Positions 410 to 33,214 of a DNA stretch of 64,000 bases are shown one piece after another. The DNA is from Litoditis marina (taxonomy: Eukaryota; Nematoda; Chromadorea; Rhabditida; Rhabditidae). The notes under the pieces are model-generated. The model did no database searches, was not told where the DNA came from, and worked only from the letters and a program-made list of their open reading frames with translations. Position 1 is the stretch's first letter, and the number at the start of each line of letters is the position of its first letter. Both the position numbers and the translations under genes were made by a program. The stretch covers positions 15,899,904-15,963,903 of the forward strand of contig OZ038436.1 of NCBI GenBank assembly GCA_964036275.1. The letters run 5' to 3'.

Positions 410-3400
410 GGATTTAAAGTGGAACTCGATGAGACCTCAGACTTTTGGGCAAAAAAACTCCTTGGATTCGCTCTCATATGTAAGCTTCTGAGTCTTTAAA
501 AAAACGAAAAGCCTCATTCCGATAATTCCAATCCTAGCTTAACCCCGACTCTAGATTTGCAGTGAGTAGGTGTCAATTTTGGGGTTTGATGTGTGAGATT
601 TTGCTTTAAAATCATTACTACAAATCGTTGAAACATATAGAATATTCTAATTTTCGTGATAGTTTTACAATAAATGTTCCGAAAACTCGAATTTGCTTGC
701 ATTCCACGCTTCCAGGGTTCCTGATGTTCCTCAACTTTTTCTCCCTCAAAACCTTCGTCTCTCGCTTCCAAATCGCAGCTACACTCGCAAAAGTGGCTGC
801 AACTGCTCTCGTAGTTGGAACTGGCTTCTATTTTTTGGTCTTCAAAGGTATAGTCACACCTAAAATCGATTCATACTCTGACGCTGGAGTTTTACAACGT
901 ACGATCTCCAACTTTTATGAGTATGCCAACCGTTTCTTCAAGACTCAATCAATTTCTCGTTGATTTTACAACATTAACAAACATAAACCAAACTCAAGTA
1001 TTGGCAGGAACCTCGCTCAAATACTAGAATCTAATATCAGAAATGAGTGTGGAACCTGCGTGTGTAATATCAAAGTAGAATCGAAAAAAACAATTTTTTT
1101 TATCACAGATTACTCATCATTTTTTAATCCAAATTACAACTTACAGGTGAAACGCAGAACTTGAAAGATCCTTTCCACGACACAAAGTTCACGATCGGAA
1201 GTTTTGTGAATGCCCTGTTTGCCGGACTGTACTCCTACGATGGATGGGATATTCTCAACTTCGGAGCTGGGGAGATCGACAATCCACGAAGGTACACACT
1301 ACAAACTTCCTCAAAAGCAATCTCAGTTCGGAAAGATGAAGTTCTTGTGGGGGTATAACTATAACATCAGTTCTCCGCTTTTTGCCTACCCATTTTTCGG
1401 TTAGCCTAGTTGGTATTGGTTGGTATTGGTAACCTAAGTCAAAAACATCTGTTACTTCCCAATCAAGAAAATAGTCTAGGTCTTGAGTATCGAAAACGAC
1501 GAACATTGAATTTGACAAATTTGGAGCAAATGTTTTTTCTTCTTCAGAAACATGCCTCTGGCTATCGTGATTGGAATGACCTCCATCGCCGGAATATATG
1601 TGGTGGTCAATATTTCGTACTTCACTATCTTGTCGGTTCCTGATCTACTCAAAAGTCCGGCTGTGGCAATGGTGAGAATTACGATGTTGTTATGAGGCCG
1701 TATTCGAAAATAAAAAATTCTGATAAGATCTGAACCTGCGTCTCCCCAAACATAGATATTTCTCCCATAGATAAGTTAGAGAAAAATTTAGTGCGGAGTT
1801 CACCAGAAATGCCTTCTGGACCAAGTTTGAAGGCTGTTTAACACACAAACAAAGATCGATAAAACGTCGACTCAACCTCAATAGTCCTCAATCGTTTTTA
1901 CCTCTTTCAATGTTTTCAGACGTTCGCCAACGAATCGCTCGGCCAGGCTGCCTTCATCATGCCCATATTCGTGGCTATTCTTCTGATTGGTTCTTTGAAC
2001 GGAACCATGTTCTCTGCCAGCAGGTTAGTAGGTGGTGAAGATATAGAGCACGGAAAACCGGAGAATGTTTGCTACTTTTACCCTAGCGTCGTTCATCAAG
2101 TTTTCGATTGAATGTTGAATCATTAAAGTTTTTTGTTGAACCTAGCTAGCTATGTTATCTTGTAGAAACTCAAGATTCAATATTTCAAGATTTATTAGCT
2201 GGGTCACATAAACGAATTCGCAGAACTGACCACCTTTCGAGAACATTTCAAGATTTAAAAACTGCCCCCAAGTTTTGAAAACTCACTTTACCAGTGTGTA
2301 AGCATGTTATCTGTTATTCATGTTATTTGTTATTTGTTATGATATCTGGTACTTCCGAAAACAACTTTACGGATGTGCTAGAAGTGTGATTCAAGGGCCT
2401 CGAATTATAACAGTGCCAAAAGCACTTTTAGAACTGAATCTTTCTCTCTGAGTCTAAACAACTGTATTTTTACAGCCAACACACTTGTTCCACTAGTATT
2501 CTGTTTCAGATACCTCCAGGCCGTTTCTAAGGAGGGTCACTTGCCATCGGCCATCAGTGGAATCAACCCCATCACCGACTCTCCCAGAGTTGCTCTATTT
2601 GTGCACGTGAGTATTTCACGAACTGTAATTAAACAATAAGCGTAGTGAGTGTTTTAAGTCGAGAGAAAGTATACACCGTTTCACGTTTCTTGTATCCGAA
2701 ACCAATCACCATATACCTAGAAATGTTAGAGTGAACGTTTCCCATATAAAATACAGAAGTTTCGAACTGTTTTCGGATTCCGTTAGGGTGATAAAACTAC
2801 AAACGTTATAAAGCTTTCCATAAATTGTATTATTAAAACGTTGGTCCGGAAATTTCACAACAGACAAACTTATTTGAAGGTGTTGATAGCAATGATCATT
2901 TCTTTCGCTGGAAACTTGGACAACTTGATCAACTACGTGGCTTTTGCTCAATGGTCTCAGAGGGCATTCACAATGGCTGCTTTGATCTGGATCAGAATCA
3001 GGTTTGTAAAAATTGAAAAGTAAAAAGTGAAAGGTTGAATGGTTTTTCGTACGCCCTTATCGTCTAATGAATCGCTTGATGTACCAGCAGGTAAAGGGCT
3101 CAAACGATGAATTCGGAAATGATAGTTTTATAAATGGTGTGCTCGAATCGGACACATTTATCTCTGATGATCGAAAGTCATGCTTTTCGATAGACGATAA
3201 ATGAATCGATGAATAAAATCAATGTTTGCAGGCATATCCCGGTGCACCCCGAGGGCATAAAAATGCCCCTCATCATGCCACTTGTTTTCTGCTTTGTTTG
3301 CAGCACACTGGTAAGTACATTCTTTCGTATATGTGTCTCCTTCCGACATACTGTATTTCATAGTTGAGTGAATTAAATTGAACAAAACTCTCATTCAACC

Positions 3401-5279: not shown

Positions 5280-6138
5280 CATGTTTTTTACTTGTACATA
5301 ACTTTGTTTCGCACATTATAAATAATTTTTATATTGAAATTATTGAAGACTGGAGTTGTTTTCCAAACGAGAAAAACGAGAAAAGCAGACCACGCGCGCA
5401 AAGAACAAAACAACAAATTGAAATAAAAATCTCTGGCGAGAAAGAAGACAATTTATACTGAATTACGATAGGAAATGAGCAGTAATTCAAAATGAGAATG
5501 AAAAGACTTCACGGGTACAAAAAATCTAGTTCTCTACAGAACCAGAGTAGAGAAACACCGACCTAACGCGAAAGCCAGTTTTTGTAGTCTGGTGTCATAA
5601 ACTTGCTCTTTTATGCCTCAAATTAGTTATTTGTATAGTACGCAAACTTCAGTTCTTATTATACTTTTGTATGAATATTAAATCTATGTTGAAACATTAT
5701 TTCAGTTTATGTTCTTTGTGCATGGTCAGAAATCAAAACATTTGCTGAACAATGCGAACACTTTCTATGGTCTTTTATGAATCATTCCGACTCCGCCATA
5801 TTTATATTATAGCAGCGAAACACAAGCATTTAAGTTATTTCTCAAATTCTGTCGCTGGGATCCACATTTTGTTGGCTCGACTAATGTTCGTGCACTTTGT
5901 AGTCTGGTCCGCAGTGAACGGATTTTTCGTTTTAGTTAGACTTTTGCAACAAAATATTTGTTGATGTATTACACGATATGGTTGGTAAAAACTGTTTTCA
6001 TTCCAGAAAACTTGAAATCCCTCTGGTAATCTTAAAAGCTTGATGTTAAATAATTCAGAAGCATTGTTAGTTTTGCCAAATACAGACTTAAACATTCACG
6101 GCGTTTTAAGTACAACCCAATCGAATGTTTCAGGGGTA
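5280..6138. other. Spacer between transporter copies 1 and 2
   Basis: The first 300 bp (5280-5590) closely match the sequence just after copy 2 (16777-17090). The last part (about 5640-6138) closely matches the sequence before copy 3 (about 20310-20824), including a block around 5725-5800 and 20395-20480. The spacer therefore holds the 3' flank of one gene type and the promoter region of another, and it lacks the retroelement found in the second spacer. The upstream region is presumably where the promoter lies; no core motif is obvious. Confidence 0.7.
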
Positions 6139-6141
6139 ATG
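6126..6141 (+). promoter_or_regulatory. Probable spliced-leader (trans-splice) acceptor and start of transporter copy 2
   Basis: A TGTTTCAG acceptor ends at 6133, five bases before the ATG at 6139, and no matching upstream donor is evident. In nematodes this is the usual form of an SL1 trans-splice site. The same arrangement is conserved before copy 3 (acceptor ending at 20819, ATG at 20825), which is why I start the protein at 6139 and not at the in-frame ATG at 6040. Confidence 0.6.
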
Positions 6142-9100
6142 TCCGACGATGGTGCCTCCTCTCGGAAGAAGAGTTCTTCTTCTCTCGCCCCTTCAGAAGT
6201 CGTTGAGACGGGTGGCAGAAGCGAGAAGATGGGGCTTCTGGGGGCCATCTCCTACATCGTCGGAAACATCGTCGGATCCGGAATATTCATCACACCCACC
6301 AGCATATACAAAGATGTGAACTCGGTTGGTATAGTATATTTCACACTTTCATCGACCCCAAGTATACGATTGTTTCCATTTTTAAGAATTGAGGCAAACT
6401 TAATAAAACTGCTGAACAGAGAAACCCACAATAATTACTTACTTTTTCTCGAGTTCAAGATTCAAGTGACTACTCCGCTTTCAACTCTCAAAGGGACCGT
6501 TTCTCTACAATTTGGATCGATTAAAAAACATGAAATCTCAAGATACTGCTTTGATAATGTACTGCTGGTCCCTTACTATCACACAGAAAAAGAAAATTGA
6601 AAATCAGTCGTGAACTAAGCCTTTTATGAGTCAAACCATCTTCAGGGTTACTGTATTGAAAAACTTTTGGTCAAATTATGAAATCGGTTTTAATACACAC
6701 AATCTCAATCTTAACTAAAAGCAAAAAGGCATAGATAACTAAAACACTTTAAAACATGTCAATTTTTGAGTCATAGAATTTATAATACGTTTTACGGACG
6801 TTTTGCGGACAATTTGTGTGCGTCTCCATGAAAATGTGGTACGTGCTGTGGCTTCCGTGTTGTTGCCGTTTTCAAATTTGCACAAAAACGACCCAAGTTA
6901 CGGAATATTCACTAATTCTGACTGTTTCGTTCATGTTTCGTCTCCATGAGTCCATTGATAACCTAAATTATCAAATTAAAGAGGTACGGTCCCTTAAAAT
7001 GTTGCACTAGATGAATTAAATGGAACTCACGGAAATGATAAAGACATAAAAATGTCACTGCCAAACTGTACGATAACTAAAACTTGGTATTGCTGGAACC
7101 TCAAACCTTGCTTGTGCAAAAATCGGAATTTTAGAATAAAAAATCTTTCAGGTAGGACTCTCTTTGATAGTATGGGTTCTGGCGGCCTTCATTTCCATGT
7201 TGGGCTCCTTTTGCTATGTGGAATTAGGGACCTCCATCAGAATGTCTGGAGGAGACTTCGCCTATATGTGCTTCATGAAATGGTAGCATCTTTCTATATA
7301 AAACCACCTAAAATAAACCTAAGCGTTATCAAATCTAATAAAAGAAGATACATCAAAAACTAAAATACCAAAAAATTAAAACAATTTTTTAATCAGGCCT
7401 TTCTGGTGTGAGTATAAAAACGTATGTACGTGTAAAAACGCAAAAATTGTACGTGATACTGGACTGGCCGTATTGATATATTATCGCAAGCAAGTGCAAG
7501 CAATATATGACTCATACCTTGCTTATTTTTGTCAGAGAATTGTGAAAAATTGACCTCGAAAGACATTCGGATAAATGTTCTCCGTGAAAGACATTAGTTT
7601 TCACAGGGAAATTCATCAAAACTGAGCTCACATTTTAGTCAAATCGTTCATTTGTCTTCTAGGTATCCGGTCGCATTTTCTTTCATGTGTATTGGGTGTT
7701 TCATTGGCTTCCCCGCCATATTAGCTATCCAGGCACAAACTTTCGCTGAATACGTCTTTGCCGTGAGTTTGGGACAGAGATGCCGATTTTCTAAAGGTCC
7801 CATTCCAATGTCCCAATGTTCCGATGTCTATTTCGAAGCCTCAATGTATCAATGTCTCGTTTCAATGTCCCGGTGTCTCGTTTCCATGCGTGGCTGAGAC
7901 TGTACATTAGGCAGAGAGTGCAAGACAACAGTGTGAGAGAGTGTGTAGGACTATGAAACGAGACGTTAAGAAATTGGGACATTGAAATGAAATATTGGGA
8001 CATTGGGACCTTTAGAGAATCAGCCCCAGAGTCTCTCGACTGAATTTACTAGTATAGTTTTTAGTCTGTTATCTTGAGTGTTTCGCAGTGAGAAAGAAAG
8101 AAGCATGACATGACGTATTCTCTGCGAAACTTTTAACTGAAAACTAAATTGGGTTTCATATGTCCAGGTCGAACGATTGTCAATGCTTTTCAGGGATTCA
8201 AAGTGGAACTCGACCCAACCTCTGACTTTTGGGCGAAAAAACTTCTCGGACTCGCTCTCATGTGTGAGATTCATTGAGCTTAGCAATTAAGAAAAACACT
8301 TAAAACCCATTTGCGCTCTGGTATGCTTCAATTAATGGCTGAAATGTATATTTCAAAATACAAGGCACTTTATGGGACGGTGGTGCTCCTCGACTGTTCT
8401 CCAGATTTCAAGGTCTCTGCATGCTTTCAATATCTCTTCACCACGGATGGTGGCAGGGCAGACACAAACTCTTCTGCCTGCGGTATTATAACTACGGACT
8501 GCTTCAACCTACTCATCTCTCCATCGGAGATAATAACATCATTCAGACACGACCAAGGGCCATCGGGATTGAGGCATGTGGGCCATTCTGTGAGCAAACA
8601 TCAATTCATTTGATTCTGCGAAGAACGGCACTTGGGAGGCAATCTTGTATTTGTTGGTTTTCATTCTTTTGCACGACTCGAGAACGTTCGATATTGTTTT
8701 TTGACAATGCCCAGGATTCACTGCCATATGCCTGTCTCGGTAGGAATACAGCATCAAAAATCGTCGCATTGTATCTCATGGGAAACGACGGAGTCTTCAG
8801 TATATGACGGTACTCGTTTAACGCGGAACATGCTGCGAAAATTCGTCGGCTCAGTTATACGTTCCAGTTGGCTTCCACGGAGGGATCGACATCAAGATAT
8901 TTGACTGTACTTTTGGACGGCCGGACATGGTCATGATATTTCAGCGGCGTCGCATCTTTCTCATTGTTCATGTACTCACATTTGTATGAATTCATCTTGA
9001 GACCGACTGGCAAGTCGTCTCGGATTATTCCATCATTCTTCGGAGGATCTTCTTGTTTGGAGCAAATATCATCTTATAATCCGCAAGGAGGCGGTGGCTC

Positions 9101-12100
9101 AGAAAACGACCACCCACTTTCAGTCCTTTCTCTTCCCAGTCCAATTTCCGGAGAGCGACATCGAGCACGGTGGTGAATAGCCGCGGAGAGATAACATCTC
9201 CTTGTCGAGCTCCTTGATAAACTTCAATCGGAACTTTGGAACTGTTTACTTCTATTGTTGGTGACAAACTTTTGTAGATTGCTTTCAAAAGCAAGATTAG
9301 TTCTGAATGAATACCGATGAGTTGCAGTGATGATCATGTTGCGTCGTGGTGTAGACTATCGAAAGCCTTTGCCAGATAGAAGAAGCAAAAGAAGGCAGGG
9401 GTTCTATATACTCTGCGATGTTCAATGACTTGTCGGATTTTATGGATGTTGTCTGCTGTGCCATACTTCTGCATATATGCCCTATCATTTCGTTTTTGGA
9501 GATAAATTTTGTTGTTTTTTCGTCGAAACTCGTAAATTATGGAGATGAAACCACAAAAATGACTTGGTTGTTGTTATAGAAAAAATACTGTAAGCAAATA
9601 TGATTCATTGTCTCAAAACGTTTTTTTTTCTCTAGTTTTCAGGGTTCCTAATGTTCATCAACTTTTTCTCCCTAAAAACCTTCGTCTCTCGCTTCCAAAT
9701 CGCCGCTACACTGGCAAAAGTGGGTGCAACTGCACTTGTGATTGGAACGGGATTATATTTTCTGGTCGTGAAAGGTACACTTATACTTGACACGTCAGGG
9801 GTACAGACAAAACGTACCACTGTTTTCTTCTTTTCTTTATGAAGTTGACTAGTTCACTTGTTAGATCTGGGCTTTCCCTTCTTTTGCTAATGACGCCTGT
9901 GACCACCAAACATTTTGTGATCTCCATCGATATTGTCCAAACTGGTTCTCTAAATCATAGTTTTATATTAGAGCGATAAGGTCGTCACAAATCGAGTTCA
10001 CGAAAAGCCGACCGTGATGTTAAAAATGAGATAGGTGAAGTGCCTGTGCTTAGTTATTGCGATATCTTCACTAAAAGAAGGTTCAGACTTTGGAGTAAAT
10101 CTGGAGTTTTCCAATCAAATCATGAATAGATCTTACAATGAATAGGATGTATGTAATGTACGGAGTATAACTGAGAAAATTACCAGTACTCTGAAGTTAA
10201 GTTGTTTACCAAGGTTCGCCGAGAACCCAAGTTGTAAATCAAGGATCAGACTTTTTACCGACAACTTGGTGCACAATTGTGCACCAATCTTTGATTTCAC
10301 AACTTGATATCAACTAGTGACCAATTTGGTGCGGCGAACCTTGGTAAACAACTCGGTGTTTAACTTCAGAGTAGCCAGTAGCTACTGCTCTAGAATTTGG
10401 CGGCGAGTCGCCGGCGACATGGAGGGGTCGGCAGAGTGTCGCCGGAGGGTCGCCTGCGGTTATTTTCAGGTCGTTGATTCTGGATAAGATATATGTTTAT
10501 CAGATACGTATACTTGTAGTTTTTAGGTGGGGGACATGTTTATACATGAACAATGAAGCCGTGAATCTCATCTTGTCTATTTCTGGCGACGATAAGTATA
10601 TACAACATTTTTATTCTCTGTAAAATTACCAGTTCCGGTATCTGATTACTATATAGAACGTTTAGTGTGAAGAACCTTAAAAAAATCGCAGGCGACCCGC
10701 CGGCGACACTCTGCCGACCCCTCCATGTCGCCGGCGAGTCGCCGCCAAATTCTAGAGTGAGTAGCGATGTTAAGCACAGAGCGAGAACGACTGGTACAAT
10801 GATACATGTTCCATTTTCAATCAATTCTCGCTCCGTGCTCACAGTATTATCGTGATTCGTTTGTGACTTCAGGCGAAACGGGCCAATTGAAGGAACCGTT
10901 CGAAGGTTCCACCTTCACGGCGGGAAGTTTTGTTAGTGCCCTGTTCGCCGGACTGTATTCCTACGATGGATGGGATATTCTAAACCTCGCAGCTGGAGAG
11001 ATCGAAAATCCACGAAGGTACAAACTACATACCTATAGCAAATGAGAGGATCTTCGTTGTAGTCTGATCTCGATTATCGCCGAAGATATTGAATTCCAAT
11101 CGTAAAACATAGGGATCAACTACAAACAAAGTGAAACATACATCGTATAATCCTTCTTTGGAAAGAGCAAACCCTAAATAGCTGTTGCTCTGAGAAAGGC
11201 GCGGGTATACCGTACGTCTCACTTTGTGCTGTGCAAGAACAAATATAGACGATTGGTCAACAACGCTGCTTTGAACCCAGTTGGTGGAGTGGTTAGCGCC
11301 CGAGTCTCCAAAACGTTCAGGGCCGGTTAAAGTCTCACATGAGACTGATAATTTAAAAATTCGTTGTGGTTTCAGAAACATGCCTCGAGCAATTGTGATC
11401 GGAATGGTTTCAATAGCCGCCATTTATGTTATGGTAAACGTCTCCTTATTCACGGTTCTGTCTGCACAGTACCTGTCGGATAGCAAGGCTGTCGCTATGG
11501 TGAGCAAACCACAAAAAAAGATCTTCCACAATTCCCAGTTGATCGGCCAATCAGTAGCAGCGTCGACGAAAGAGTGTGCAGATCAGAGAGGCGCAGGTTG
11601 TCTCAGCCTGTCTGCGGTCTCATTGACTTCCATGCTCTCTCAATCGCAGAAAATTGACGCAAATCGTTCAGAGAAGTCTCACTGTTATCACAGGTACAGA
11701 CAGATTGGATTGTTTAAGGTACGTTCTAACTGGATTGTAGTTTAATCTGGCAGCGCACAGTCACTAGCGAAAGTTTGTGTAAATAATCAAAAGACAAAAA
11801 CAAAGGTAGTAACGTGATAGAAAACCACTATGGACACAACAAAAGAACGAGGTTTCAATTTATATAGAAATACAAAATAGAAAGACTACAGAAGATACAC
11901 GGAAACGCAACCAAGAACTAGAAAACAAACACGAAGAGATACGAACTAATTGAAAACTACAGACTGCCCGTCTTAATTGCCTCAGCTTTGATAATGCACC
12001 AGGCGTTGACTGTGACGACAATACTTACTTAATTATTACTACGACGGTAATAAATACACACAATCCAATATCTGAACAGCACACCTAGCAAAAAATACCC

Positions 12101-16776: not shown

Positions 16777-17329
16777 CTTGGTTCTTACCTGTAAAGAACT
16801 TGGTTTCGCACAGTATAAATAAGTTTTGTATTAAACCTATTCAAGACTCAAGTTAATAGCGGAACAAGAGAAACAAGAGAGAGCAAAACACGCGTGCGAG
16901 CAACATAAAACGTGAAAAGCTGATGTGAAAAATAAGACGATTTGTACTGAATTATGATAGAAAACAAAGAGTAATTCAAAATTTAAATGAAAAGACTTCG
17001 TGAAGACATAAAAATCTAGTTCTCTGCAAACGACATTACAGTAAGAATCGGGAACACCGACCTATCGCGAAAGCCAGTTTTTGTATTTTTGTGCTCGCGA
17101 ATTTTAGAGCATGCAGAGACATTGAGAGTTGGGGATCGCTCATGAACCACCACTGTGTAACATTGTGATGTGACGAATGAAACTCAAACTAGAAATGTGA
17201 CACTTGTCGTTACTTACTCACTTGAACTCAGATGAGGCTGTGCAATTAAACAGTTATCTGTGAATTCTCATTTCGTTTGTCGTGGCGTGCGGTCTGTTCG
17301 CATTCCCGACAAATTGATTTGAGTCTCAC

Positions 17330-20310: not shown

Positions 20311-20811
20311 AACGCAAACACTAGTTTTCATTATCTTTTATATTAAATTTAATTCAGAAATTTATTAAATAATATTCCATTCAAGGTCTTCTATTGGTCA
20401 GAAATCAAAACACTTGCTGAACAATGCGAACACTTTCTATGGTCCTTTATGAATCATTCCGACTTCGTCATATTTATGTAGATATTGCAGAACCTAAACA
20501 TTTTTGTTATTTCTTGAATTCTGTTGCTGTGATGCACAGTTTGCTCGACAAATGTTCGTGCACTTTGAAGTCTGATCAGCAGTAAACGGATTTTTTGTTT
20601 TACTTAGACTTTTGTAATAAAATATTTGTTGATGTAATACACGTTTTGGTCTGTGGAAACTGTTTTCATTCTAGAAACCTTATTAATCCCCCTGGTAATC
20701 CTGAAAGCTTGCATGTTCAATAATTCGGAACATCGTTAGTTTCGCCAAATACAGATATATTACTACGTGCTACGTGAACATTCACGGCGTTATAAGTATA
20801 ACTCACTCGAA

Positions 20812-20827
20812 TGTTTCAGTGGTAATG
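20812..20827 (+). promoter_or_regulatory. Probable trans-splice acceptor and start of transporter copy 3
   Basis: TGTTTCAG ends at 20819 and the ATG is at 20825, matching the arrangement of copy 2. Confidence 0.6.
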
Positions 20828-23800: not shown

Positions 23801-26800
23801 CTGAAATATCGCAGGGGCTGTCTTGATACCAAACGGCAATCGTTTGTATCGATACAGTCCTCGATGTGTGTTGATGACAATCAACTCCTTCGCATTATCC
23901 GTGAGTTCCACTTGCAGATATGCATCCGAAAAGTCAATTTGTGAAAACCATTTTCCACCATTCAGAGTTGCAAAAATGTCATCCGGAATAGGTAGAGGAT
24001 ATTCATGATTTTCCAGTACCTCATTCAATCCTGTCGAAAAATCAGCGCACACTCTGATTTTTCCATTTGCCTTCTTCACGCACACAATAGGTGCTGCCCA
24101 TTTGCTGTGCGTCACTGGTTCAATTACATCCATGTCAATTAACCTGTTCAGTTCTTTCTCCACAATCTCAACTGCAGAATGTGGTAACGGTCGCTTCTGA
24201 CGATACACTGGTTTCGATCCGGGTATCACTTTCATATCAGCCAATTCTTTTGTGCAGCGGCCAAGGCCTTCCTCAAATACTGTCGCGTACTTTGCCTTCA
24301 AATTGTCTACCAGCGTAGAGCAATCTTTTTCCACTGTTGCAACCGTCATCATGTTCAAATGATATGCCATAGAATCACATTGATTTATCCATTCTAGTCC
24401 CATCAGACTAGATCTCGGGGTCACGTAAGCGAATCCCTTGCCAGTTGATTTTCCAGTCTGAAAATCGCATTCAAGAACTCCTTGAATTTGCATTGTGCCG
24501 CCGCTCGCGTCGCGCACTGTCACGTTTGAATTTTCCAATTCAGGTTCACCCATTTGCTTCCATGTGTCTACGTTCAACAACGTAATGTCCGATCCAGTGT
24601 CCAACTGAAACTGTACTGGGTAACCGTTCACGCTTACGTCCAAATATTTTCGCGCTACGTTCACATTCACGCTATCAGTTGCATCCAACTCAGTTTTGCC
24701 AATCAGGACCACCTGATTCGTAGTTCGCATTCGTGCTTGATATGATTTCACTACTTCGCAAAATTTCTCTTTGTGACCGCTGGTCTTGCACTTCTTGCAA
24801 TTCCACTTAGACTTGTTACAGTCAGTTGCTCTGTGACCTCGCGAACCGCAGTTCCAACACTCAGACTCAGTTGTACGATTGTTTTTCACAAACTTGCCTT
24901 GCTTATTACGTTGATGTTCAGATTTTCTTGCTTTCACTTCATTGACAGATCGAGATGTACCTCCGATGAGCTTGGAATCACGCTTCATGCTTATCCATTT
25001 GTCACACTCTTGATACAATTTGTTCAATGAAACCGTATTTCCGTTCGCAATTTCATGGTCGAGAAATACCAGCAATCTTGTTCGTAGTTCAGCATCCTTA
25101 TTCGATTTCAAACCATAAATCCAAAGTAAAGCCTTCAATTCGTCACTAGTCATGTTGTGTATGTTCGCTCTCTCACATTGTTCATTCACACGTCCTGTAT
25201 ATTGCAAATAATCTTCAGTTTCCAGCTTTTCAGTTGTCAGACAATGATACCTCGTGGTGAACACAGAAGTCTTCACGTCAAACAAATCCTTCAAGCTTTT
25301 CACTGTCTCATCAAAAGTTCTATTCGCTGTCACATCTGGTAAAATGTGTCTCTTGTACTGTTCAAATACGTTTTCGTCCAGTTTACCCAACAACAATCGT
25401 ACTCTTGCTTTGTCGTCCAAAGATGCTCCATCCACTGTGAATACCTCGCTGTACCTGTCAAACCACTTGCTGAAAGTGTGGTTACTCTCTTCATCAAACA
25501 CAAAAGTCGTCACCCTCGCGTCCAAATCAGCCATGATACGAGAAGAATCACGTGTCACACCTTTCAATTCCAACAATTGTTTAATTTGATCTTGCTGTTG
25601 CCGGATAATATCCAAAAGATTCACATTTCCATCATCATCATCCTGTTTTTCCATCTGTTTCACCATTTTGAACAATGTTGCAATCAAAGTTCACTGATGT
25701 CACTTGCGTAAATAATTTTGCTATCCTGATCGCCACTTTGTTGTGTCTGTCAGTACACACAACTTGTATTTATTCCAGGTTACTCTGTGTGTTGAACACT
25801 TGCTATATATTACAGTTTATTCCAGATAATAGTTACAATAATAGCAGAGAATATAGAGGTCACGTTCCCGTAGGATCAGTCTCATAACAATGAGCTCTAG
25901 CAGCCTTATATAGACAATGTGGGCGTGGTCAGAGCATTCTAGAAGCTCACGGCTAGATAGCATGGGGAGCATAGAGACGCTAGACAATGAGAGGGATATC
26001 AGCAACAGGGACGCCTGGCTGATTCCATGGGAAGAAATATAGATAGATAGTAACGTTATAATCAAATAATAACGATATACAACACTTAGTGACGTGAATG
26101 TTAGACACAACAGAACTCAGAAACGTGCAGTGAAAAAGTGCACGATGCCTCATTAGAACGAACTTCACGTGAATATTCAGTTGACCTCTAGTTCAGTCTA
26201 TTTTCCGCTTTTTTCGACTGCCACAGTACACAGTACTCAGTCTACGCAAGTTGTCGAGCCAGCTCAATAACACTGCCAAACTGTACGATAACTTAAATTT
26301 TGGTAGGGGACCCAAACGTTGTGCTTGTGGAAAAAATCGGATCAGAGGAAAAAAACTTTTCAAAAAAAATTCCAGGCCGGACTCTCTTTGATAGTATGGG
26401 TTCTGGCGGCCTTCATTTCCATGCTGGGCTCCTTTTGCTATGTGGAATTAGGGACCTCCATCAGAATGTCTGGAGGAGACTTCGCCTACATGTGCTTCAT
26501 GAAATGGTACGCCAAATCGTAACCAGCTTGTTTGGTAATTTCACAAAGTAAGAATTGAGAATTAACAGCGCTGTTTTTTGGCCAAAAATGTACTGACGTG
26601 GCGAAAAATCGAGAAATCATCTTCTAGGTACCCGGTGGCGTTCTCTTTCATGTGTATCGGATGTATCATCACCTACCCCGCCACACTAGCTATCCAGGCA
26701 CAAACTTTCGCTGAATACGTCTTCGCTGTGAGTTTGGACAGAGTCTAGAACCAAATTCAGCAAGTAAAGTAAATCCCTTATCCTGAGTAAATCGCAGTGA

Positions 26801-29800
26801 GAATTGCTGTCATTAAATACAGACCAATTTAAGATTCTATAAAGCATTTCAACTGACATATTCAACAAAAATTGCGTTCCATATGGAAGGCTGGTCGATT
26901 GTAAATGCTAGATCGTCAATGCTTTTCAGGGATTCAGAGTGGAACTCGACCCAACCTCTGACTTTTGGGCGAAAAAATTTCTTGGATTCGCCCTCATGTG
27001 TGAGATTCATTGAACTTGGTCATCACAAAACAACACTTAAACCCTGTTACCGGGCATGTTTTGCCAATTATCAGCTAAAATTCATATCTCAAACCACAAA
27101 GAACTTTGTGGGATGATTGCGTGAACGTTCTCCCCATTGGGATTTGGATGAGCTGGGTTTGTTTCGGTTTCGTACCACGTATTGTATTGTGCTTGTTGTA
27201 TTTATGCTCTATCAGTCAAAGTTTTGTTGTTTTTCGGTCGAAAATTGTGACATGTATAATAGATAAAACCACAACAAAGACCGGAAGAAAGGTTTTAGAA
27301 AAATAAGATTATGTAGACAGATATGATTTGTTTTTTTGAAACTTCATTTTTATAATAATTTCTAGGGTTCCTAATGTTCATAAACTTTTTCTCCCTGAAA
27401 ACCTTCGTGTCTCGCTTCCAAATCGCCGCTACACTGGCAAAAGTGGGTGCAACTGCACTTGTGATTGGAACGGGATTCTATTTTCTGGTATTCAAGGGTA
27501 CGCTTGCATTTGAAACAATTTTGATATTGACATCTTCGAGCTTTGAATTCTCGATCTATATCACTTTTCTCCAAGTTTCTACTGGTTTTCCAAATCAGAG
27601 AAGACCATGACGTGAAAATTAAAAAACAACAATATAAAGTTGTTGTCTTCTAGGGCATTCATATAACTTTACGTTGCGGCATTCATATAACTTAACTTTG
27701 CGAAAACTACGATAGACTCAGTGGATTTAAACCACGGTATTGCTTCGTATATATCAATACGCGAGATAATCTAACAGTGATTATCTTCAGCAATCTCTCG
27801 ATTCTTTGAAATCTCGATCTATATCACTTTTCTCCAAGTATCTACTGGTTTTCCAAATCAGAGAAGACCATGACGTGAAAATTAAACAACAACAATATAA
27901 AGTTGTTGTCTTCGAGGGCAGTCATATAACTTTACGTTGCGGCATTCATATAACTTAACTTTGCGAAAACTACGATAGACTCAGTGTATTTAAACCACGG
28001 TATTGCTTCGTATATATCAATACGCGAGATAATCTAACAGTGATTATCTTTAGCAAGTCTAAAAAAAATCACTCTTGAGTGATTTTTGATAATTTGCAGG
28101 TGAAACAGGCCAACTGAAGGAACCGTTCGAAGGTTCCACCTTCACAGCGGGAAGTTTTGTTAGTGCCCTATTCGCCGGGTTGTATTCCTACGATGGATGG
28201 GATATTCTAAACTTCGGAGCTGCGGAGATCGAAAATCCACGAAGGTACAGCAAATGACAGAATCTTGTTTGTAGTCTGATCACAATGCACACCAAAGTTA
28301 CAGAATACCAATCGAAAACCATCAAATTATAAACAAAGTGGGATAAGGGACATACGTCGTATAGGCTGGTTTTAGAAAGAGCAAACTCTACATAGTTGTC
28401 ACTCAGAGTAAGGGATACTGTATATCTCACTTTGTGCTGAGTGAGAACACATTTATACGATTCGTCAACAACGCTGCTATAAGCCCAGCTGGCATATTGG
28501 TTAGTGTTCACGTTTCCCAAATATTTCGATTCGGTTCAAGTCTCTCATAAGGCGAACATAGTATAAATTCGGGACGCAGGGTAAAGTTGGTCTTATTTTG
28601 TTGTGGTTTTAGGAACATGCCTCGAGCAATTGTGATCGGAATGGTTTCAATAGCCGCCATTTATGTGATGGTAAACGTCTCCTTCTTTGCGGTTTTGTCT
28701 GTACAATACCTTTCGGATAGTAAGGCTGTAGCTATGGTGAGCCAAATACTGTTTGAAAACAACAAAAAAACATTTTCCACAACTCTCAGTCAATGGTTTA
28801 TTCACTTTTGTCGCAGCGTCGACGAGAGAGTGTGCGGATCAGAGACACGCAGAGTGTCTCGGCCTGCCTGCGGTCTCATTGACTTTCATGCTCTCTCGCC
28901 TTTGCAGAATCAATCGTAAAAAAATTGGCCCTAATCGTTCAGAGAAGTCTCACTATTATCATTGGTAGGGAATGATTGGATTGTGTAGGGTACGTTGTAC
29001 ATTCAAACTGTAGTTGTAATTTAGTCTTGGAGCGCACACGTAGCAAAAAATGCCGGGTCAATAAACTTTTCAGTTATTATGTACAATAGTTTGTCGCTTT
29101 CAAGATTGGTAATACATATTGACAATGTTGAAACTTGTAATATAGTATAAAATAATTGAAAAATGGCAGGATTTCGCGGATCAATCCCTTGGACAAGCTG
29201 CCTTCATAATGCCCATATTCGTAGCCATTCTTCTAATTGGATCACTGAACGGAACTATGTTCTCTGCCAGCAGGTGACTGATCTCTTATTTGAAGTTGAC
29301 TCATATATTGAACTCAGTACAGACGTCAAACTTCTCGATCAGTTTCACTAAGTCAAGTAACCATCGCTGTTTAACAATATAAGATAAGTCATACAAAAAT
29401 GACTCCTTACGAGGTCGAGCAAAAAACAAAGTGCAGGATGCCTCATTAGAATGCTAACTCTACGTGGCTATTCAATTCACTTCTAGTTGAGCACATTTTG
29501 TTAAAAGAGTACCGAAATCCCTTCAATGTTCCATGATTTTTCGTTGCAGATATCTTCAGGCGGTGGCCAAAGAAGGCCATTTGCCATCGGCAATTAGTGG
29601 AATCCACCCAATATGTGGTTCTCCCAGAGTAGCGCTAGTGGTTCACGTAAGTGTGTCACGACTTACACGTATTTTTTAGAGCTAACGGAACTCAGGGTAT
29701 GTGATAACATGATTTACCCAAAGATATACTTCCTATTCAATGATTTGTTTCTTTGCAACGCAAAGTCGTTCTTATTTCTACATTAACGTAGTGTATTCTC

Positions 29801-32800
29801 TGGAAACGGGTTTAAGAAGCGGTTTCTCGCTTATAGAATCTGTGCAATACGTGTGCATAAATATTCCGCGTCCTTGTCCCATTCTACGTCTATTTCTACC
29901 CCGGCGGGTCGGAGATTAACAAGCACCGCACTTTTGAAGATAAACCGGAACTTCCTAACCTCAATTTCCTAAAAGCAATAAAAACTCAGGAAGGTAAGAG
30001 TAAAAAGTCAATGTTTCCTAGAATTTTGTCAAATACCAATTTCATACACTTATTTGAAGGTTTTCTTAGCAATGATAATTTCTTTTGCTGGGGACGTGGA
30101 CAGTTTGATCAACTATGCAGCCTTTGCTCAATGGTCTCAGCGGGCATTCACAATGGTTGCTCTGATCTGGATCAGACTCACGTTGGTATTTACTTATAAA
30201 TAATGAAAAATACTTGTAAACTGAAATATAGGACTTTTTGTCCTGTACAAAAAGCACAAGTGTACATATATGATATGTAGAATACAGACTGCAGCTTTGT
30301 TCAGGTAACAGCTTCAACAACTCTTTACTTTTTTGTATCAGTTTCACACACGGGAGTATAAGGCATTCCTAACGCAAGAAAAAGATGCGAATGACGAATC
30401 GTGGGAACGTTTTTTTTCTCTCTTTGAGCGGCAAACACTCACCAATGACTCCGAATTCAGTAAAACACGTTTCGAATAAAAAATAAGAAGAGAAGCGAGA
30501 ATGGAAGGGCTAGAAACCGGAATTGCTGAAACTTTAAAAAACACTCTCCACGACTTTTAACTAGCCAAAACATTCATAGTTTTCGTTGTAGCCAGGAATG
30601 GGCTGAGTAACCCGCAGTATTCGAATGAGCTACTTATATTCCCACAAGAATTCGGACGAAACTAAAATATACGATTCTAAAAATTGTGACAGAATTATTT
30701 GCAGTTATATCCCGGTGCACCCAGAGGGAATTAAACTGCCAATAATGATGCCACTCATTTTCTGTCTTCTGTGCAGCACGCTGGTAAGTATCCAGAATAG
30801 ATAATTTTCAAGTTACAGGGTCAACCTGACACGCTAAATGTTGTACTGCTCTGCTGTATTTAGAGTTTGATCCCGCTGTGTTTCTGTAGAATTTGGAGAA
30901 TAACGTTGTTTATGGATTATACACATCAAACTACAAATAAGTTATAATAACCATGTTTATACTGTATTTTGCACGGAATAATAGAGTGACAAGAAAAACT
31001 TTCACTTAAAGAAGGACGATTACGTGGTCCAATCGCAACGGTTCAGTCCTTTAAACTGCAATACATTTTTCAATTGCAGTTTAAAGGACCGTTGTCACGG
31101 GATCGGTCCACATTATCGTCCTACTTTAAAGAAGGACGGTAATGTGGACCAATCTCGTGTCAACTGCAATTGAAAAATGGACTGCTGTTTAAAGGACTGA
31201 AGCGTTGCGATTGGACCACATAATCGTCCTTATTTAATTACAGGTGATAGTGACGACCTTGGAAAACTTTGGAGAAGCCGCAATCGGACTATGTAAGTTG
31301 AAAACGAAAAAGTAAACACTAGTTCATAGACACTCAGTATTACAGTAAAAAAATTGTATTTACCATTGCATCGTGTGGTAGTTTTTGTAAAACAAATAGT
31401 TGAACATAACTTACGAAGCATAGATACCACGACAACGGTTAAAGTAACAACTTTGGTGATTTGCTCGAAGCTCCTAGTTGACTAGGTTTTGTAATAAGCA
31501 GACTGATCGGATTCCTTAGGAAAAATTAAAGTAGGACGATTATGTGCTTCAATCTCGGCGCGTCAGTCCTTTGAACTGCACTTGAAAAATGTATTGCAGT
31601 TTAAAGGACGGAAGCGTTGAGAATGGAGCACATTATCGTCATTCCTTAGTACTTTATTTCTTCTGGAATCGTTTTTAAAATCTGATTTCCAGGTATTTTG
31701 CTGGGCGGCTTGACCGTTTATATGTTGTTCGTGTTCGATGGAACACTGCTCTCCCTGATGAGCTATCGAAAGCTAACCGGAACAATAAACAGTTTGTTGA
31801 ACACTCGAATAGTTGTAGTCGTGGACCAGCGATAGTCGTGCAGAAATTGATTCCCTGTGTCGCAGTCCTTTGAGTTATTGTGCGAATGGCTACATGAACC
31901 TAGCTGAGTTATGGTTTTTCGATGCACGCAATAGTTTAGGCATCAAACTACACACACAGCGGGATAGGACAGCATACGCCATATACCGCCTCTGAGAATG
32001 ACGAACCCTCTAGACGAGGTGTACCCAGTTTCAGAGTATTTTGCACATTTTCTGGTTACTTTCAGTAACATCGTGTAGAGTAGAGATTCAGAGTTTCACT
32101 ATCTACTTAAATGGTTACCAACTTGGTTAGTCGTCTGATTGGCCAGGAGCAAAAACTTCCAACTTTCCTGAAACGTAGTGTGATCAAACTACAGGTTCTA
32201 CTCTGAAAATTCACTGACCCGGCCCCCGCCGACTGAGTCGAAATTGAGACCGCAACGACCGTGTCGCTGTGGTGACTGATTTTACTCATGAAAATAGCAT
32301 ATGTTTTGAGGAGGCGCAGGCTGATGAGCAACAGTTAAAACTGAGACGGCAACGACCAGGTCGCGGCCGTACTCGCGTTTTACTCATAGTATGGCCAAAA
32401 AAACCCTCATTCAATCAAAGTGCACTATGTCGATGTAGGAATAAAAACTCCTAATGATTCAACTTACCAACGGGTTACCCACAAACAACTAATAAAACGA
32501 AAAACTGTCCAAAAAGCAGGTGGAAGTCGTTAGATTTCCAGACAAGACAACCAAGGTAGCTCAGATAATCTTTGACATCATGCCGGAACATGGCTCAGAG
32601 GAGGACGCAGCCAGGGCCATTGGAGGCTCAACTAAGAACACCGACAGGGTATACTTATAATTCTATAAATTATGTAATGTATTCAAGTTTTGTTATGAAT
32701 AACCTTACACAAAAGGGCGGTTTACACATCCAACCAAAATGCAACCGAGTTGCATGTGTTAAGAAAATTTGGTTGCTTTCAGTTGCTTTTCAAATGCAAC

Positions 32801-33214
32801 CAAACACTCAATTTTTGGACATTTTCCTGTTTTTAATGCAATTTGGTTGCTTTGGTTGCATTTGGAAAGCAACCGAATGCATTTGGAAAGCAACCGAACT
32901 GTCTTTACACATGCAACCCGGTTGCATTTTGGTTGCATGCAACCCGGTTGCTTGTGTAATTGGCCACACAAAAGGTGATATTCATTTGAGACATGCGTAC
33001 GAACCTTGATGATTAATTCGATCAAGCTGCACTTTTTTACATTCTGTCAACCTAAGAAGCACATGCCATGCTCATTGTTTCTCCCAGTTTATTTTCATTC
33101 CACACTCAATGAGAAACCGTTCCTCCTAACTTTCAGGTTCATGCTGCCAAATCGGAAGAAAGACCTCCAGTAGAAAGTTGGAATAATCAAGAATCATTCA
33201 AGGATTATCTGTAA
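20825..33214 (+). CDS. SLC7-family amino acid transporter, tandem copy 3 (540 aa)
   Basis: Fifteen exons: 20825-21010, 26376-26506, 26628-26727, 26930-26999, 27366-27497, 28100-28244, 28613-28736, 29170-29273, 29550-29646, 30060-30181, 30705-30783, 31244-31292, 31693-31791, 32542-32648, 33137-33214. They sum to 1623 nt in one frame. Same architecture as copy 2: Ser-rich N-terminus, GSGIF motif, YDGWD, no heavy-chain cysteine. Differences: FGAAEIENPRR where the other copies have a G or LAAG version, a diverged 3' half (exons 11-13), and a C-terminus ending KDYL, so the T-x-L PDZ-type ending of copies 1 and 2 is absent. Intron 1 is 5.4 kb because of an antisense LTR retrotransposon; without it the intron would be about 315 bp. 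Splice sites at the retained boundaries are intact, so the gene may still be expressed if the insertion is spliced out. Confidence 0.87.
21039..21384 (-). repeat. 3' LTR of the retrotransposon
   Basis: 346 bp, TGTTG...CAACA, identical by eye to 25739-26084. On the element's own (minus) strand it carries AATAAA motifs in its distal part, suitable for polyadenylation. Confidence 0.95.
21385..21396 (-). promoter_or_regulatory. Polypurine tract of the retrotransposon
   Basis: On the minus strand, AAAAGGGGAGG abuts the start of the 3' LTR. This is the expected place and composition for the plus-strand DNA primer. Confidence 0.8.
21458..25687 (-). CDS. Gag-Pol polyprotein of Ty3/gypsy retrotransposon (1409 aa)
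   Basis: One uninterrupted frame. Order of parts: gag about 1-330 with two zinc knuckles (CWNCGSRGHRATDC at 277-290 and CKKCKTSGHKEKFC at 297-310); aspartic protease with LDTGSD at 362-367; reverse transcriptase about 495-670 with FSQIDFSDAYLQ (region A) and the catalytic YLDD at 645-648; RNase H with VVAADACDYGIG and the SQIEKEALGLVFA block; integrase with an HHCC zinc finger (HIGHPG...CSACQ) and DDE core (IHIDFAGP, VSDNGTQF, PYHPQSNGQAERF). The Pro/Gln-rich C-terminal tail has no chromodomain that I recognise. The start at 25687 is 51 bp inside the 5' LTR boundary. Gag and pol are fused with no frameshift or stop. All catalytic residues I can check are present. Confidence 0.95.
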   Translation of the reverse strand: MIATLFKMVKQMEKQDDDDGNVNLLDIIRQQQDQIKQLLELKGVTRDSSRIMADLDARVTTFVFDEESNHTFSKWFDRYSEVFTVDGASLDDKARVRLLLGKLDENVFEQYKRHILPDVTANRTFDETVKSLKDLFDVKTSVFTTRYHCLTTEKLETEDYLQYTGRVNEQCERANIHNMTSDELKALLWIYGLKSNKDAELRTRLLVFLDHEIANGNTVSLNKLYQECDKWISMKRDSKLIGGTSRSVNEVKARKSEHQRNKQGKFVKNNRTTESECWNCGSRGHRATDCNKSKWNCKKCKTSGHKEKFCEVVKSYQARMRTTNQVVLIGKTELDATDSVNVNVARKYLDVSVNGYPVQFQLDTGSDITLLNVDTWKQMGEPELENSNVTVRDASGGTMQIQGVLECDFQTGKSTGKGFAYVTPRSSLMGLEWINQCDSMAYHLNMMTVATVEKDCSTLVDNLKAKYATVFEEGLGRCTKELADMKVIPGSKPVYRQKRPLPHSAVEIVEKELNRLIDMDVIEPVTHSKWAAPIVCVKKANGKIRVCADFSTGLNEVLENHEYPLPIPDDIFATLNGGKWFSQIDFSDAYLQVELTDNAKELIVINTHRGLYRYKRLPFGIKTAPAIFQQLMNKLCSGLQGVTSYLDDVIVVGTTMDEHKANLMALFDRISEYGFRVRLEKCSFMKPEIPFLGFIVDRNGRRPNPEKIQAIKNMEAPKDESKLRAFLGMVTYYSSFVPSMKKLRGPLDQLLKRDAKWIWKSDQQEAFENLKGALSSEMNLTHYDPQQQIVVAADACDYGIGCVISHRFSDGTEKPISHAARSLTSSEAKYSQIEKEALGLVFAIKRFHKYLFGRKFLLLTDHKPLLAIFGSKKGVPVHSANRLMRWATMLLGYDFDIEYVNTTKFGQADGLSRMIQRFPMTEEDVVVANIECDVQAVFEENMRKLPTTAENVRNSTLRDPVLKKVLKYVKTSWPRKVESKCKQYFNIRTLLSELNDCILFEGRVVIPSDLRSKVLKEIHIGHPGIVRMKRLARSLVFWPGLDSDCERIVKECSACQNEVKTPTKVPLQTWTTPERVWQRIHIDFAGPTDGMFYLVIVDAKSKWPEMIAMQHITARNTVKAMLNIFVRYGMPETIVSDNGTQFTSQEFKDMCEQNGIKHMRTSPYHPQSNGQAERFVDILKRGLRKQKGEGKTTKEALRILLLAYRSTPSELLDGETPAEVFLGRKLRTTLNLLQPMENTERVQSELQSRTEKQFNLKHGTQERNFQVGNYVMIKNYHGLKWNWKRAKVVRKIGNVNYELELEGKRVRRHANQIRNVQVPPFGSESDEGDAWLDVMLSTFNLQPTAIVTAAPDAQDGPAADPPVQMSPVRQPQPQNVQAVPQPVNQPAAVPPLRRSSRQPKPVVPFDPSC
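25721..25735 (-). promoter_or_regulatory. Primer binding site of the retrotransposon
   Basis: Three bases inside the 5' LTR the element strand reads TGGCGATCAGGATAG, whose complement ends in CCA like a tRNA 3' end (plus strand CTATCCTGATCGCCA). The matching tRNA was not identified. Confidence 0.7.
25739..26084 (-). repeat. 5' LTR of the retrotransposon
   Basis: 346 bp; on the minus strand TATATAAG (plus 25905-25912) is a plausible TATA box, so transcription would run antisense to the host gene. Confidence 0.95.
27539..28058 (+). repeat. 263-bp tandem duplication in intron 5 of copy 3
   Basis: Two head-to-tail copies with a period of 263 bp; for example ATCTATATCACTTTTCTCC occurs at 27554 and at 27817, and GTATTGCTTCGTATATATC recurs in each. 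Only a few substitutions separate them. Within each unit a short block (GGCATTCATATAACTT) is itself doubled. Confidence 0.85.
28315..28555. repeat. Dispersed repeat with tRNA-like tail, intron 6 of copy 3
   Basis: Homologous to 11105-11345 in copy 2. The B-box-like GGTTCAAGTCTC is near 28534. SINE-like, non-coding. Confidence 0.45.
31008..31235. repeat. Two adjoining copies of the AAAGAAGGACG MITE family
   Basis: Copy one spans 31008 to about 31125 and copy two about 31128-31235. Each is a palindrome with ends AAAGAAGGACGAT / ATCGTCCT and a middle of TTTAAACTGCAAT-type sequence. They lie in intron 11 of transporter copy 3, the second ending just before the acceptor of exon 12. Confidence 0.75.
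31528..31647. repeat. AAAGAAGGACG-family MITE, worn copy
   Basis: In intron 12 of transporter copy 3; AAAGTAGGACGATTATGTG at the left and CACATTATCGTCATTCC at the right. Confidence 0.7.
31935..31985. repeat. Short copy of the ATCAAACTACAAACACAGCGG dispersed repeat
   Basis: ATCAAACTACACACACAGCG followed by GGATAGGACAGCATACG resembles 48373-48420 and the blocks at 11105 and 28315. Non-coding, in intron 13 of transporter copy 3. Confidence 0.4.
32717..32961. repeat. GCAACC-rich palindromic element
   Basis: In the last intron of transporter copy 3. The ends TTTACACA...CAACC and GGTTGCTTGTGTAA are inverted, and GGTTGCATTTGGAAAGC-type motifs repeat inside in both orientations. About 245 bp, MITE-like. 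Confidence 0.65.

What the first reader, a model, noticed from the sequence alone, without database searches (positions are those of the whole stretch)
410..33214. Middle transporter gene looks like an unequal-crossover hybrid of its two neighbours
Copy 2 is copy 3-like in its promoter region and exons 1-9, and copy 1-like in exons 11-15 and its 3' flank. Counted by eye: exon 8 of copy 2 differs from copy 3 at 5 and from copy 1 at 19 of 104 sites; exon 13 differs from copy 1 at 9 and from copy 3 at about 28 of 99. The switch is around exon 10. The two spacers (5280-6138 and 16777-20824) match at both ends, the second being longer by the RTE insertion. This is what one misaligned crossover between an original pair would leave: gene 1, hybrid 3/1, gene 3. 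The hybrid pairs one gene's promoter and N-terminal half with the other's C-terminus.
Basis: partly seen in the sequence, partly recalled or inferred. Interest (0 to 1): 0.75.

Follow-up and report, generated by a model that had tools for sequence, protein, structure and literature searches.

The report
Hybrid amino-acid transporter between its parents
In a nematode genome, the middle of three neighbouring amino-acid transporter genes looks like a natural hybrid made by one misaligned exchange between the other two, so it carries one parent's control region and most of its transporter body but the other parent's tail; the mechanism is a textbook one, seen here in an old copy whose reading frame is still intact.

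Summary
The core finding holds. Three complete 15-exon SLC7 genes, co-orthologues of C. elegans aat-6, lie in tandem. One switch in exon 10, between 13463 and 13475, beats all 5000 shuffles; introns and flanks switch the same way. Copy 2-copy 3 silent divergence in exons 3-9 (Ks 0.305) equals copy 1-copy 2 in exons 11-15 (0.320), so one event explains both halves. Gene 1 / hybrid 3-1 / gene 3 is the anti-Lepore product of unequal crossover.

Corrections: copy 1's promoter and exons 1-3 lie outside the window. Fetched, they show exons 1-2 to be alike in all three copies, and about 177 bp of leader and exon 1 to be a copy 1-copy 2 conversion (3 differences). The protein tree alone is weak for the 3' half. 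The hybrid has copy 1's PDZ-type tail, absent from copy 3, and has proportionally more replacement changes than its parents. No sister species was available.

The parts
410..5279 (+). Copy 1 (parent A), exons 4-15; exons 1-3 lie upstream of the window (C2:15898062-15898247, 15899264-15899394, 15899574-15899673)
   Evidence: spliced frame of 543 aa without a stop; ends -ITKL
6139..16776 (+). Copy 2 (hybrid), exons 1-15: exons 3-9 B-type, exons 11-15 A-type
   Evidence: spliced frame of 540 aa without a stop; ends -ITKL
20825..33214 (+). Copy 3 (parent B), exons 1-15
   Evidence: spliced frame of 540 aa without a stop; ends -KDYL
13464..13474 (+). Crossover interval in exon 10 of copy 2 (homologous to 2925-2935 in copy 1 and 30105-30115 in copy 3)
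   Evidence: site list: last 2=3 site 13463, first 1=2 site of the copy-1-like stretch 13475; change-point
2930..13468 (+). First copy of the duplicated unit: A 3' part, spacer 1, B-type 5' part of the hybrid (borders approximate)
   Evidence: inferred
13469..30110 (+). Second copy of the unit: A-type 3' part of the hybrid, spacer 2, B 5' part; enlarged by insertions (borders approximate)
   Evidence: inferred
5280..6138 (+). Spacer 1: left part matches spacer 2 left part (A-type 3' flank), right part matches spacer 2 right part (B-type promoter)
   Evidence: 73% over 324 columns and 79% over 526 columns
16777..20824 (+). Spacer 2, homologous to spacer 1 at both ends, interrupted by non-LTR retrotransposon pieces
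   Evidence: endonuclease and RVT_1 matches
6121..6297 (+). Copy 1-copy 2 conversion tract (leader and first part of exon 1), little diverged and so probably younger than the crossover
   Evidence: 3 differences in 177, longest identical run 115 bp; 98% over 180 bp
16696..16776 (+). Exon 15 of the hybrid, encoding the A-type tail that ends in a class I PDZ-type ligand (T-K-L)
33137..33214 (+). Exon 15 of copy 3: the alignment shows small length differences that put the end of the reading frame elsewhere; the -T-K-L end is absent

Best explanation
An ancestral tandem pair A-B of aat-6 genes in this nematode lineage (silent divergence about 1 per site) mispaired, B on one chromatid with A on the other, and recombined within exon 10. 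The duplication product A / B5'-A3' hybrid / B was kept. The hybrid took B's promoter and exons 1 to early 10 (about TM1-TM9, helix borders recalled), and A's remaining exons (about TM10-12, the tail and the class I PDZ-type end) with A's 3' flank. Shown: mosaic structure, flanks, breakpoint, equal age of both halves, open frames. Inferred: that the joining was homologous recombination; that the B promoter drives the hybrid; that the A tail binds an NHERF/NRFL-1-type scaffold. Separately, and judging by divergence later, leader and exon 1 sequence was converted between copies 1 and 2, and exons 1-2 were homogenised among the three. The hybrid then accumulated proportionally more replacement changes than its parents.
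For: Change-point in exon 10: gain 45.8, 0 of 5000 shuffles as high; 1=2 against 2=3 sites are 42/144 before and 76/18 after, p=5e-21. Ks 2-3 in exons 3-9 0.305 [0.22-0.40]; Ks 1-2 in exons 11-15 0.320 [0.19-0.50]; Ks 1-3 1.17 and 0.90, not different from each other (p=0.30). Raw divergence of 2-3 introns, 2-3 silent sites, 1-2 introns, 1-2 silent sites and 1-2 3' flank: 0.235, 0.249, 0.248, 0.261, 0.247, homogeneity p=0.96. Introns whose homologous match beats all 26 mismatched pairings: 2-3 in 7 of 9 before the breakpoint and 0 of 5 after; 1-2 in 3 of 5 after and 1 of 9 before (intron 1, 26 vs 25 bits); 1-3 in 0 of 14. Flanks: 2-3 share 526 columns of 5' flank, 1-2 share 324 columns of 3' flank; 1-3 share 26 bp of 5' flank and pieces of 65 and 49 columns of 3' flank; 2-3 gave no 3' flank match. 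Protein tree of exons 3-9: (2,3) 100/100, alternatives rejected p=0.0002 and 0.00005. The three copies form one clade against the 15 other nematode rows in both segments.
Against: The protein tree of exons 11-15 gives (1,2) only 86/71, and neither (2,3) nor (1,3) is rejected (p=0.21, 0.27). The 2-3 5' flank is less diverged (0.173) than the rest (p=0.06 when added), perhaps from constraint. Introns 10 and 14 show no 1-2 match above controls, and the intron segments were picked by alignability, so their divergence is biased low. A weaker change-point within the 3' part (p=0.017) reflects copy 2-private sites clustered in exons 10-11; exon 10 of copy 2 has an excess of them (11 of 119 vs 49 of 1495, p=0.003), which blurs the breakpoint. 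Exons 1-2 need extra conversion events. No sister species or reads were available.
Confidence: 0.88

Rival explanations
1. Copy 2 began as a whole-gene tandem duplicate of copy 3 and later had exons 10-15 plus 3' flank overwritten by copy 1 through gene conversion.
For: Gene conversion has probably acted in this cluster: 3 differences in 177 bp between copies 1 and 2 in exon 1, and low silent divergence of exons 1-2 in all pairs.
Against: The tract would run from exon 10 to over 300 bp past the stop codon (about 3.6 kb); surviving tracts in Caenorhabditis paralogues aggregate at 50-200 nt, though single tracts can reach several thousand (PMC3966223 section 7). It also needs the conversion to be as old as the duplication (0.320 vs 0.305, p=0.88).
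Confidence: 0.08
2. Copy 2 began as a duplicate of copy 1 and its promoter and 5' half were overwritten by copy 3.
For: Same mosaic pattern; conversion has probably acted here.
Against: Needs an even longer tract (promoter to exon 10, about 7.8 kb) and the same coincidence of ages.
Confidence: 0.03
3. No exchange: one history (2,3), with copy 3 evolving fast in its 3' half.
For: Copy 3 is long-branched in exons 11-15, and the protein test there does not reject (2,3).
Against: The 1-2 silent distance itself falls from 0.92 to 0.32 (p=2e-5), and 1-2 introns 11-13 and the 3' flank align; acceleration of copy 3 cannot do that.
Confidence: 0.01

Closest known systems
Anti-Lepore haemoglobins (beta-delta fusion)
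   Same: The duplication product of unequal crossover within a tandem pair. PMC10954745 (passages) describes hybrid beta-delta chains from non-equal crossover and a duplication of about 7.4 kb from HBD exon 3 to HBB exon 1. The gene order delta / beta-delta / beta is recalled.
   Different: Those are rare human alleles; here the event is old (silent divergence about 0.3), present in the assembly, and the hybrid has diverged.
CYP11B1/CYP11B2 chimera of glucocorticoid-remediable aldosteronism
   Same: Promoter of one gene joined to coding sequence of its neighbour by unequal crossing over (PMC8750845, passages).
   Different: A disease allele with a known regulatory effect; here there are no expression data.
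C. elegans AAT-6 (SLC7 family)
   Same: 64% identity over 90% of copy 2. AAT-6 ends -T-R-M, a class I PDZ motif needed for binding NRFL-1, mainly by its PDZ II domain (PMC3419730, passages); copies 1 and 2 end -T-K-L.
   Different: The list (120 of 675 hits) shows one C. elegans protein named AAT-6; here there are three tandem co-orthologues, one of them (copy 3) without the class I end.
Gene conversion between Caenorhabditis paralogues
   Same: The 177-bp tract shared by copies 1 and 2 in exon 1 is within the usual 50-200 nt (PMC3966223 section 7).
   Different: The main mosaic is far longer and its flanks are joined in the order that crossover predicts.

Membership tests
Unequal-crossover hybrid (anti-Lepore type) | Hybrid lies between both intact parents, same strand | tested here: met
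Unequal-crossover hybrid (anti-Lepore type) | 5' part from the downstream parent, 3' part from the upstream parent, one switch at homologous positions | tested here: met
   exons 1-2 are an exception, put down to conversion
Unequal-crossover hybrid (anti-Lepore type) | Flanks follow: promoter as downstream gene, 3' flank as upstream gene; two spacers homologous | tested here: met
Unequal-crossover hybrid (anti-Lepore type) | Both halves diverged from their parents for the same time | tested here: met
   (p=0.96 without the 5' flank, 0.06 with it)
Unequal-crossover hybrid (anti-Lepore type) | Two-gene ancestral state in a relative | not testable with these tools
   nearest listed protein 67% identical; no relatives of G000 held (message)
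AAT-6 / SLC7 | Amino acid permease domain | tested here: met
   copy 2: PF13520 4e-42; LAT1, xCT and b0,+AT chains among the 34 PDB matches of copies 2 and 1
AAT-6 / SLC7 | Groups with nematode AAT-6 | tested here: met
   no other C. elegans AAT was put in the trees
AAT-6 / SLC7 | Class I PDZ ligand at the C-terminus | tested here: inconclusive
   met in copies 1 and 2, not met in copy 3; present in 13 of the 15 tree rows and in 24 of all 120 listed proteins, which include other AAT types and partial models
Heterodimeric SLC7 light chain (LAT1-like) | Cysteine for the heavy-chain disulphide (LAT1 C164; its role recalled) | tested here: not met
   no Cys at the aligned place in copies 2 and 1 (alignments)

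The most novel reading that the evidence does not exclude
The crossover created a new functional transporter: a B-type permease under B's promoter that carries a PDZ-type membrane anchor which B itself now lacks, and then changed in function. Support: class I tail in copies 1 and 2 but not 3; 22 replacement and 21 silent private changes in the hybrid (exons 3-9 and 11-15) against 7 and 39 in the parental lineages (p=0.0006); 24 of 214 columns that are conserved in at least 14 of 15 other AAT-6 rows changed, against 8 in copy 1 and 16 in copy 3. The alternative is relaxed constraint on a dispensable copy, to which its unusual splice donors (exon 9 CCC|gtttgt, exon 10 AAG|gtcggt) and the loss of a Ser present in all 15 other rows may also point.
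Probability: 0.3. Interest if true: 0.55.

Novelty: new member of a known kind. Interest (0 to 1): 0.4.

Why it matters
It is a clear example of a hybrid gene kept together with both parents, with equal divergence on both sides of a breakpoint placed within about 12 bp. It offers a natural domain swap in a transporter whose C. elegans orthologue has a tested PDZ anchor, so the effect of moving a membrane-retention tag between paralogues could be measured.

Tried and rejected
Constraint instead of conversion for exons 1-2: against copies 1-3 the C4 paralogues have Ks of at least 1.2 there wherever exon 1 or 2 aligned (L011, L012, L029), so silent sites are not frozen, although somewhat slower than elsewhere (L011: pS 0.61-0.67 in exons 1 and 2 against 0.73-0.81 in exons 3-9). 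A lost gate residue: hybrid F245L first looked like the LAT1 gate Phe, but by alignment LAT1 F252 matches Y235 (the role of F252 is from recall, being a listing only), so this was dropped. GATA-site differences in promoters: 3 in 1000 bp of copy 1, 0 in 859 of copy 2, 1 in 524 of copy 3; too few to use. Assembly artefact: copy 2 has its own private differences along the gene, so it is not a join of unchanged copies; reads were not available. Species identity by COX1: not completed. A structure prediction was not attempted. Papers: searches gave listings; of PMC3419730, PMC8750845, PMC10954745 and PMC3966223 I saw passages, and of PMC3966223 also section 7 in full; no other paper was opened. 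One search (anti-Lepore + unequal crossing over + hybrid gene) found 0 papers. One search (aat-6 + SLC7 + nematode) listed 3 papers, none with duplication in its title; I claim nothing further about what is in print.

Full report
What is there. The window is G000:C2:15899904-15963903 of a 262-Mb, 522-contig assembly. It begins inside the first of three tandem genes on the + strand. With the upstream DNA (L008, L009; overlap checked), all three genes resolve into 15 exons and open frames of 543, 540 and 540 aa (exon borders were set by hand from splice sites, frame and homology). Copy 2 is an amino acid permease by Pfam, and copies 2 and 1 match SLC7 structures. The nearest proteins are nematode AAT-6: Auanema sp. 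JU1783 67%, Ancylostoma ceylanicum 67%, C. elegans AAT-6 64% (675 proteins found, 120 listed). In trees with 15 of the 25 printed homologues (the other 10 were partial, unnamed or other AAT types), the three copies form one clade for exons 3-9 (100/99) and exons 11-15 (96/92). The cluster is therefore most likely a lineage-specific set of aat-6 duplicates. BLAST of copies 2 and 3 found no further copy in the 20 kb upstream, and DNA searches of the genome with exons 1, 6 and 14 gave these three and weaker, distant matches only.

Checking the counts. Over exons 3-9 (772 sites) copies 2 and 3 differ at 65, 1 and 2 at 162, 1 and 3 at 163. Over exons 11-15 (406 sites) copies 1 and 2 differ at 38, 1 and 3 at 90, 2 and 3 at 87. 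A one-change-point model on the 340 two-state coding sites puts the switch in exon 10 with a gain of 45.8; the largest of 5000 shuffles was 11.3. The last 2=3 site is 13463 and the next 1=2 site is 13475, so the exchange lies within about 12 bp, at codons 378-382 of copy 2. By alignment to LAT1 and xCT this is probably between TM9 and TM10 (helix borders recalled).

Non-coding evidence. For each of the 14 introns I compared the homologous pairing with 26 mismatched pairings. Copies 2 and 3 beat all controls in introns 1, 3, 4, 6, 7, 8 and 9 (7 of 9 before the switch) and in 0 of 5 after. Copies 1 and 2 do so in introns 11, 12 and 13 (3 of 5 after), and in 1 of 9 before (intron 1, 26 against 25 bits). 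Copies 1 and 3 do so in 0 of 14. The 5' flank is shared by 2 and 3 (526 columns, 79%) and the 3' flank by 1 and 2 (324 columns, 73%), with only fragments shared by 1 and 3. These are the junctions that A / B-A / B predicts.

One event or two. Under one crossover both halves of the hybrid have been separate from their parents for the same time. Ks is 0.305 [0.22-0.40] for 2-3 in exons 3-9 and 0.320 [0.19-0.50] for 1-2 in exons 11-15, while the parents are at 1.17 and 0.90. Raw divergence in five sets (2-3 introns, 2-3 silent sites, 1-2 introns, 1-2 silent sites, 1-2 3' flank) is 0.235-0.261, homogeneity p=0.96; adding the less diverged 5' flank (0.173) gives p=0.06. The intron pieces were chosen by alignability, so they understate divergence. 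A conversion history would need a tract of several kb including a flank and the same coincidence of ages.

What does not fit simply. Exons 1-2 have low silent divergence in all three pairs (Ks about 0.12-0.13 against 0.92 and 1.17 for 1-2 and 1-3 in exons 3-9; p=1e-10 and 2e-13; for 2-3 p=0.03). Leader and first part of exon 1 of copies 1 and 2 differ at 3 of 177 bp, and a second change-point lies in exon 1 (0 of 5000 shuffles). The C4 paralogues show that these silent sites do diverge. Short conversion tracts are the best reading; their length is typical for Caenorhabditis paralogues (PMC3966223 section 7). So 'copy 3-like in exons 1-9' should read 'exons 3-9'. The protein tree of exons 11-15 supports (1,2) only at 86/71, and its rivals are not rejected (p=0.21, 0.27); the case for the 3' half rests on silent sites, introns and flank. 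Exon 10 and the start of exon 11 carry many copy 2-private sites.

What it probably does. A C. [quoted passage not shown] Class I ends occur in 13 of the 15 tree rows. Copies 1 and 2 end -T-K-L; copy 3 ends -D-Y-L, and its last exon aligns with small length differences that move the end of the frame. The crossover therefore joined a B-type transporter body to the A-type tail; when copy 3 lost its own tail is not known. Binding and expression are inferred. The heavy-chain cysteine of LAT1-type light chains is absent. The hybrid's private changes are 22 replacement to 21 silent, against 7 to 39 in the parental lineages (p=0.0006; exons 3-9 alone p=0.009, exons 11-15 alone p=0.06; one ambiguous site set aside), and it departs from 24 of 214 conserved columns against 8 and 16. 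That means changed or relaxed selection; the frame is open, and pairwise Ka/Ks stays low (0.11 for 2-3 in exons 3-9, 0.15 for 1-2 in exons 11-15).

Verdict. The mechanism is the known anti-Lepore type of unequal crossover; this is a new, old and well-marked example.

Noticed in passing
21039-26085: LTR retrotransposon in antisense in intron 1 of copy 3: 347-bp LTRs identical, TTAG on both sides, one uninterrupted 1410-aa frame with zinc knuckle, protease, RT, RNase H and integrase matches. A very recent insertion.
   Followed up: partly
17380-19800: Non-LTR retrotransposon pieces in spacer 2: endonuclease match 17380-18093, RVT_1 matches within 18498-19046 and 19315-19800.
   Followed up: partly
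13419-13537: Exon 10 of the hybrid has excess private changes (11 of 119 vs 49 of 1495, p=0.003) and lacks a Ser codon found in copies 1 and 3 and in all 15 other AAT-6 rows checked.
   Followed up: partly
27541-28056: Two head-to-tail copies of a 253-bp segment, 97% alike, in copy 3 intron 5.
   Followed up: no
31001-31237, 31525-31648, 53108-53231, 63696-63822: Family of inverted-repeat elements of about 120 bp.
   Followed up: no
13082-13338 and 15266-15523: Repeat in introns 9 and 12 of the hybrid, also about 2.1-2.4 kb upstream of the window start, matching in both orientations.
   Followed up: no
C. auriculariae proteins P0010 and P0018: Two AAT-6-like proteins from contigs of the same length (285186), possibly an independent tandem duplication; the second lacks a class I tail.
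   Followed up: no
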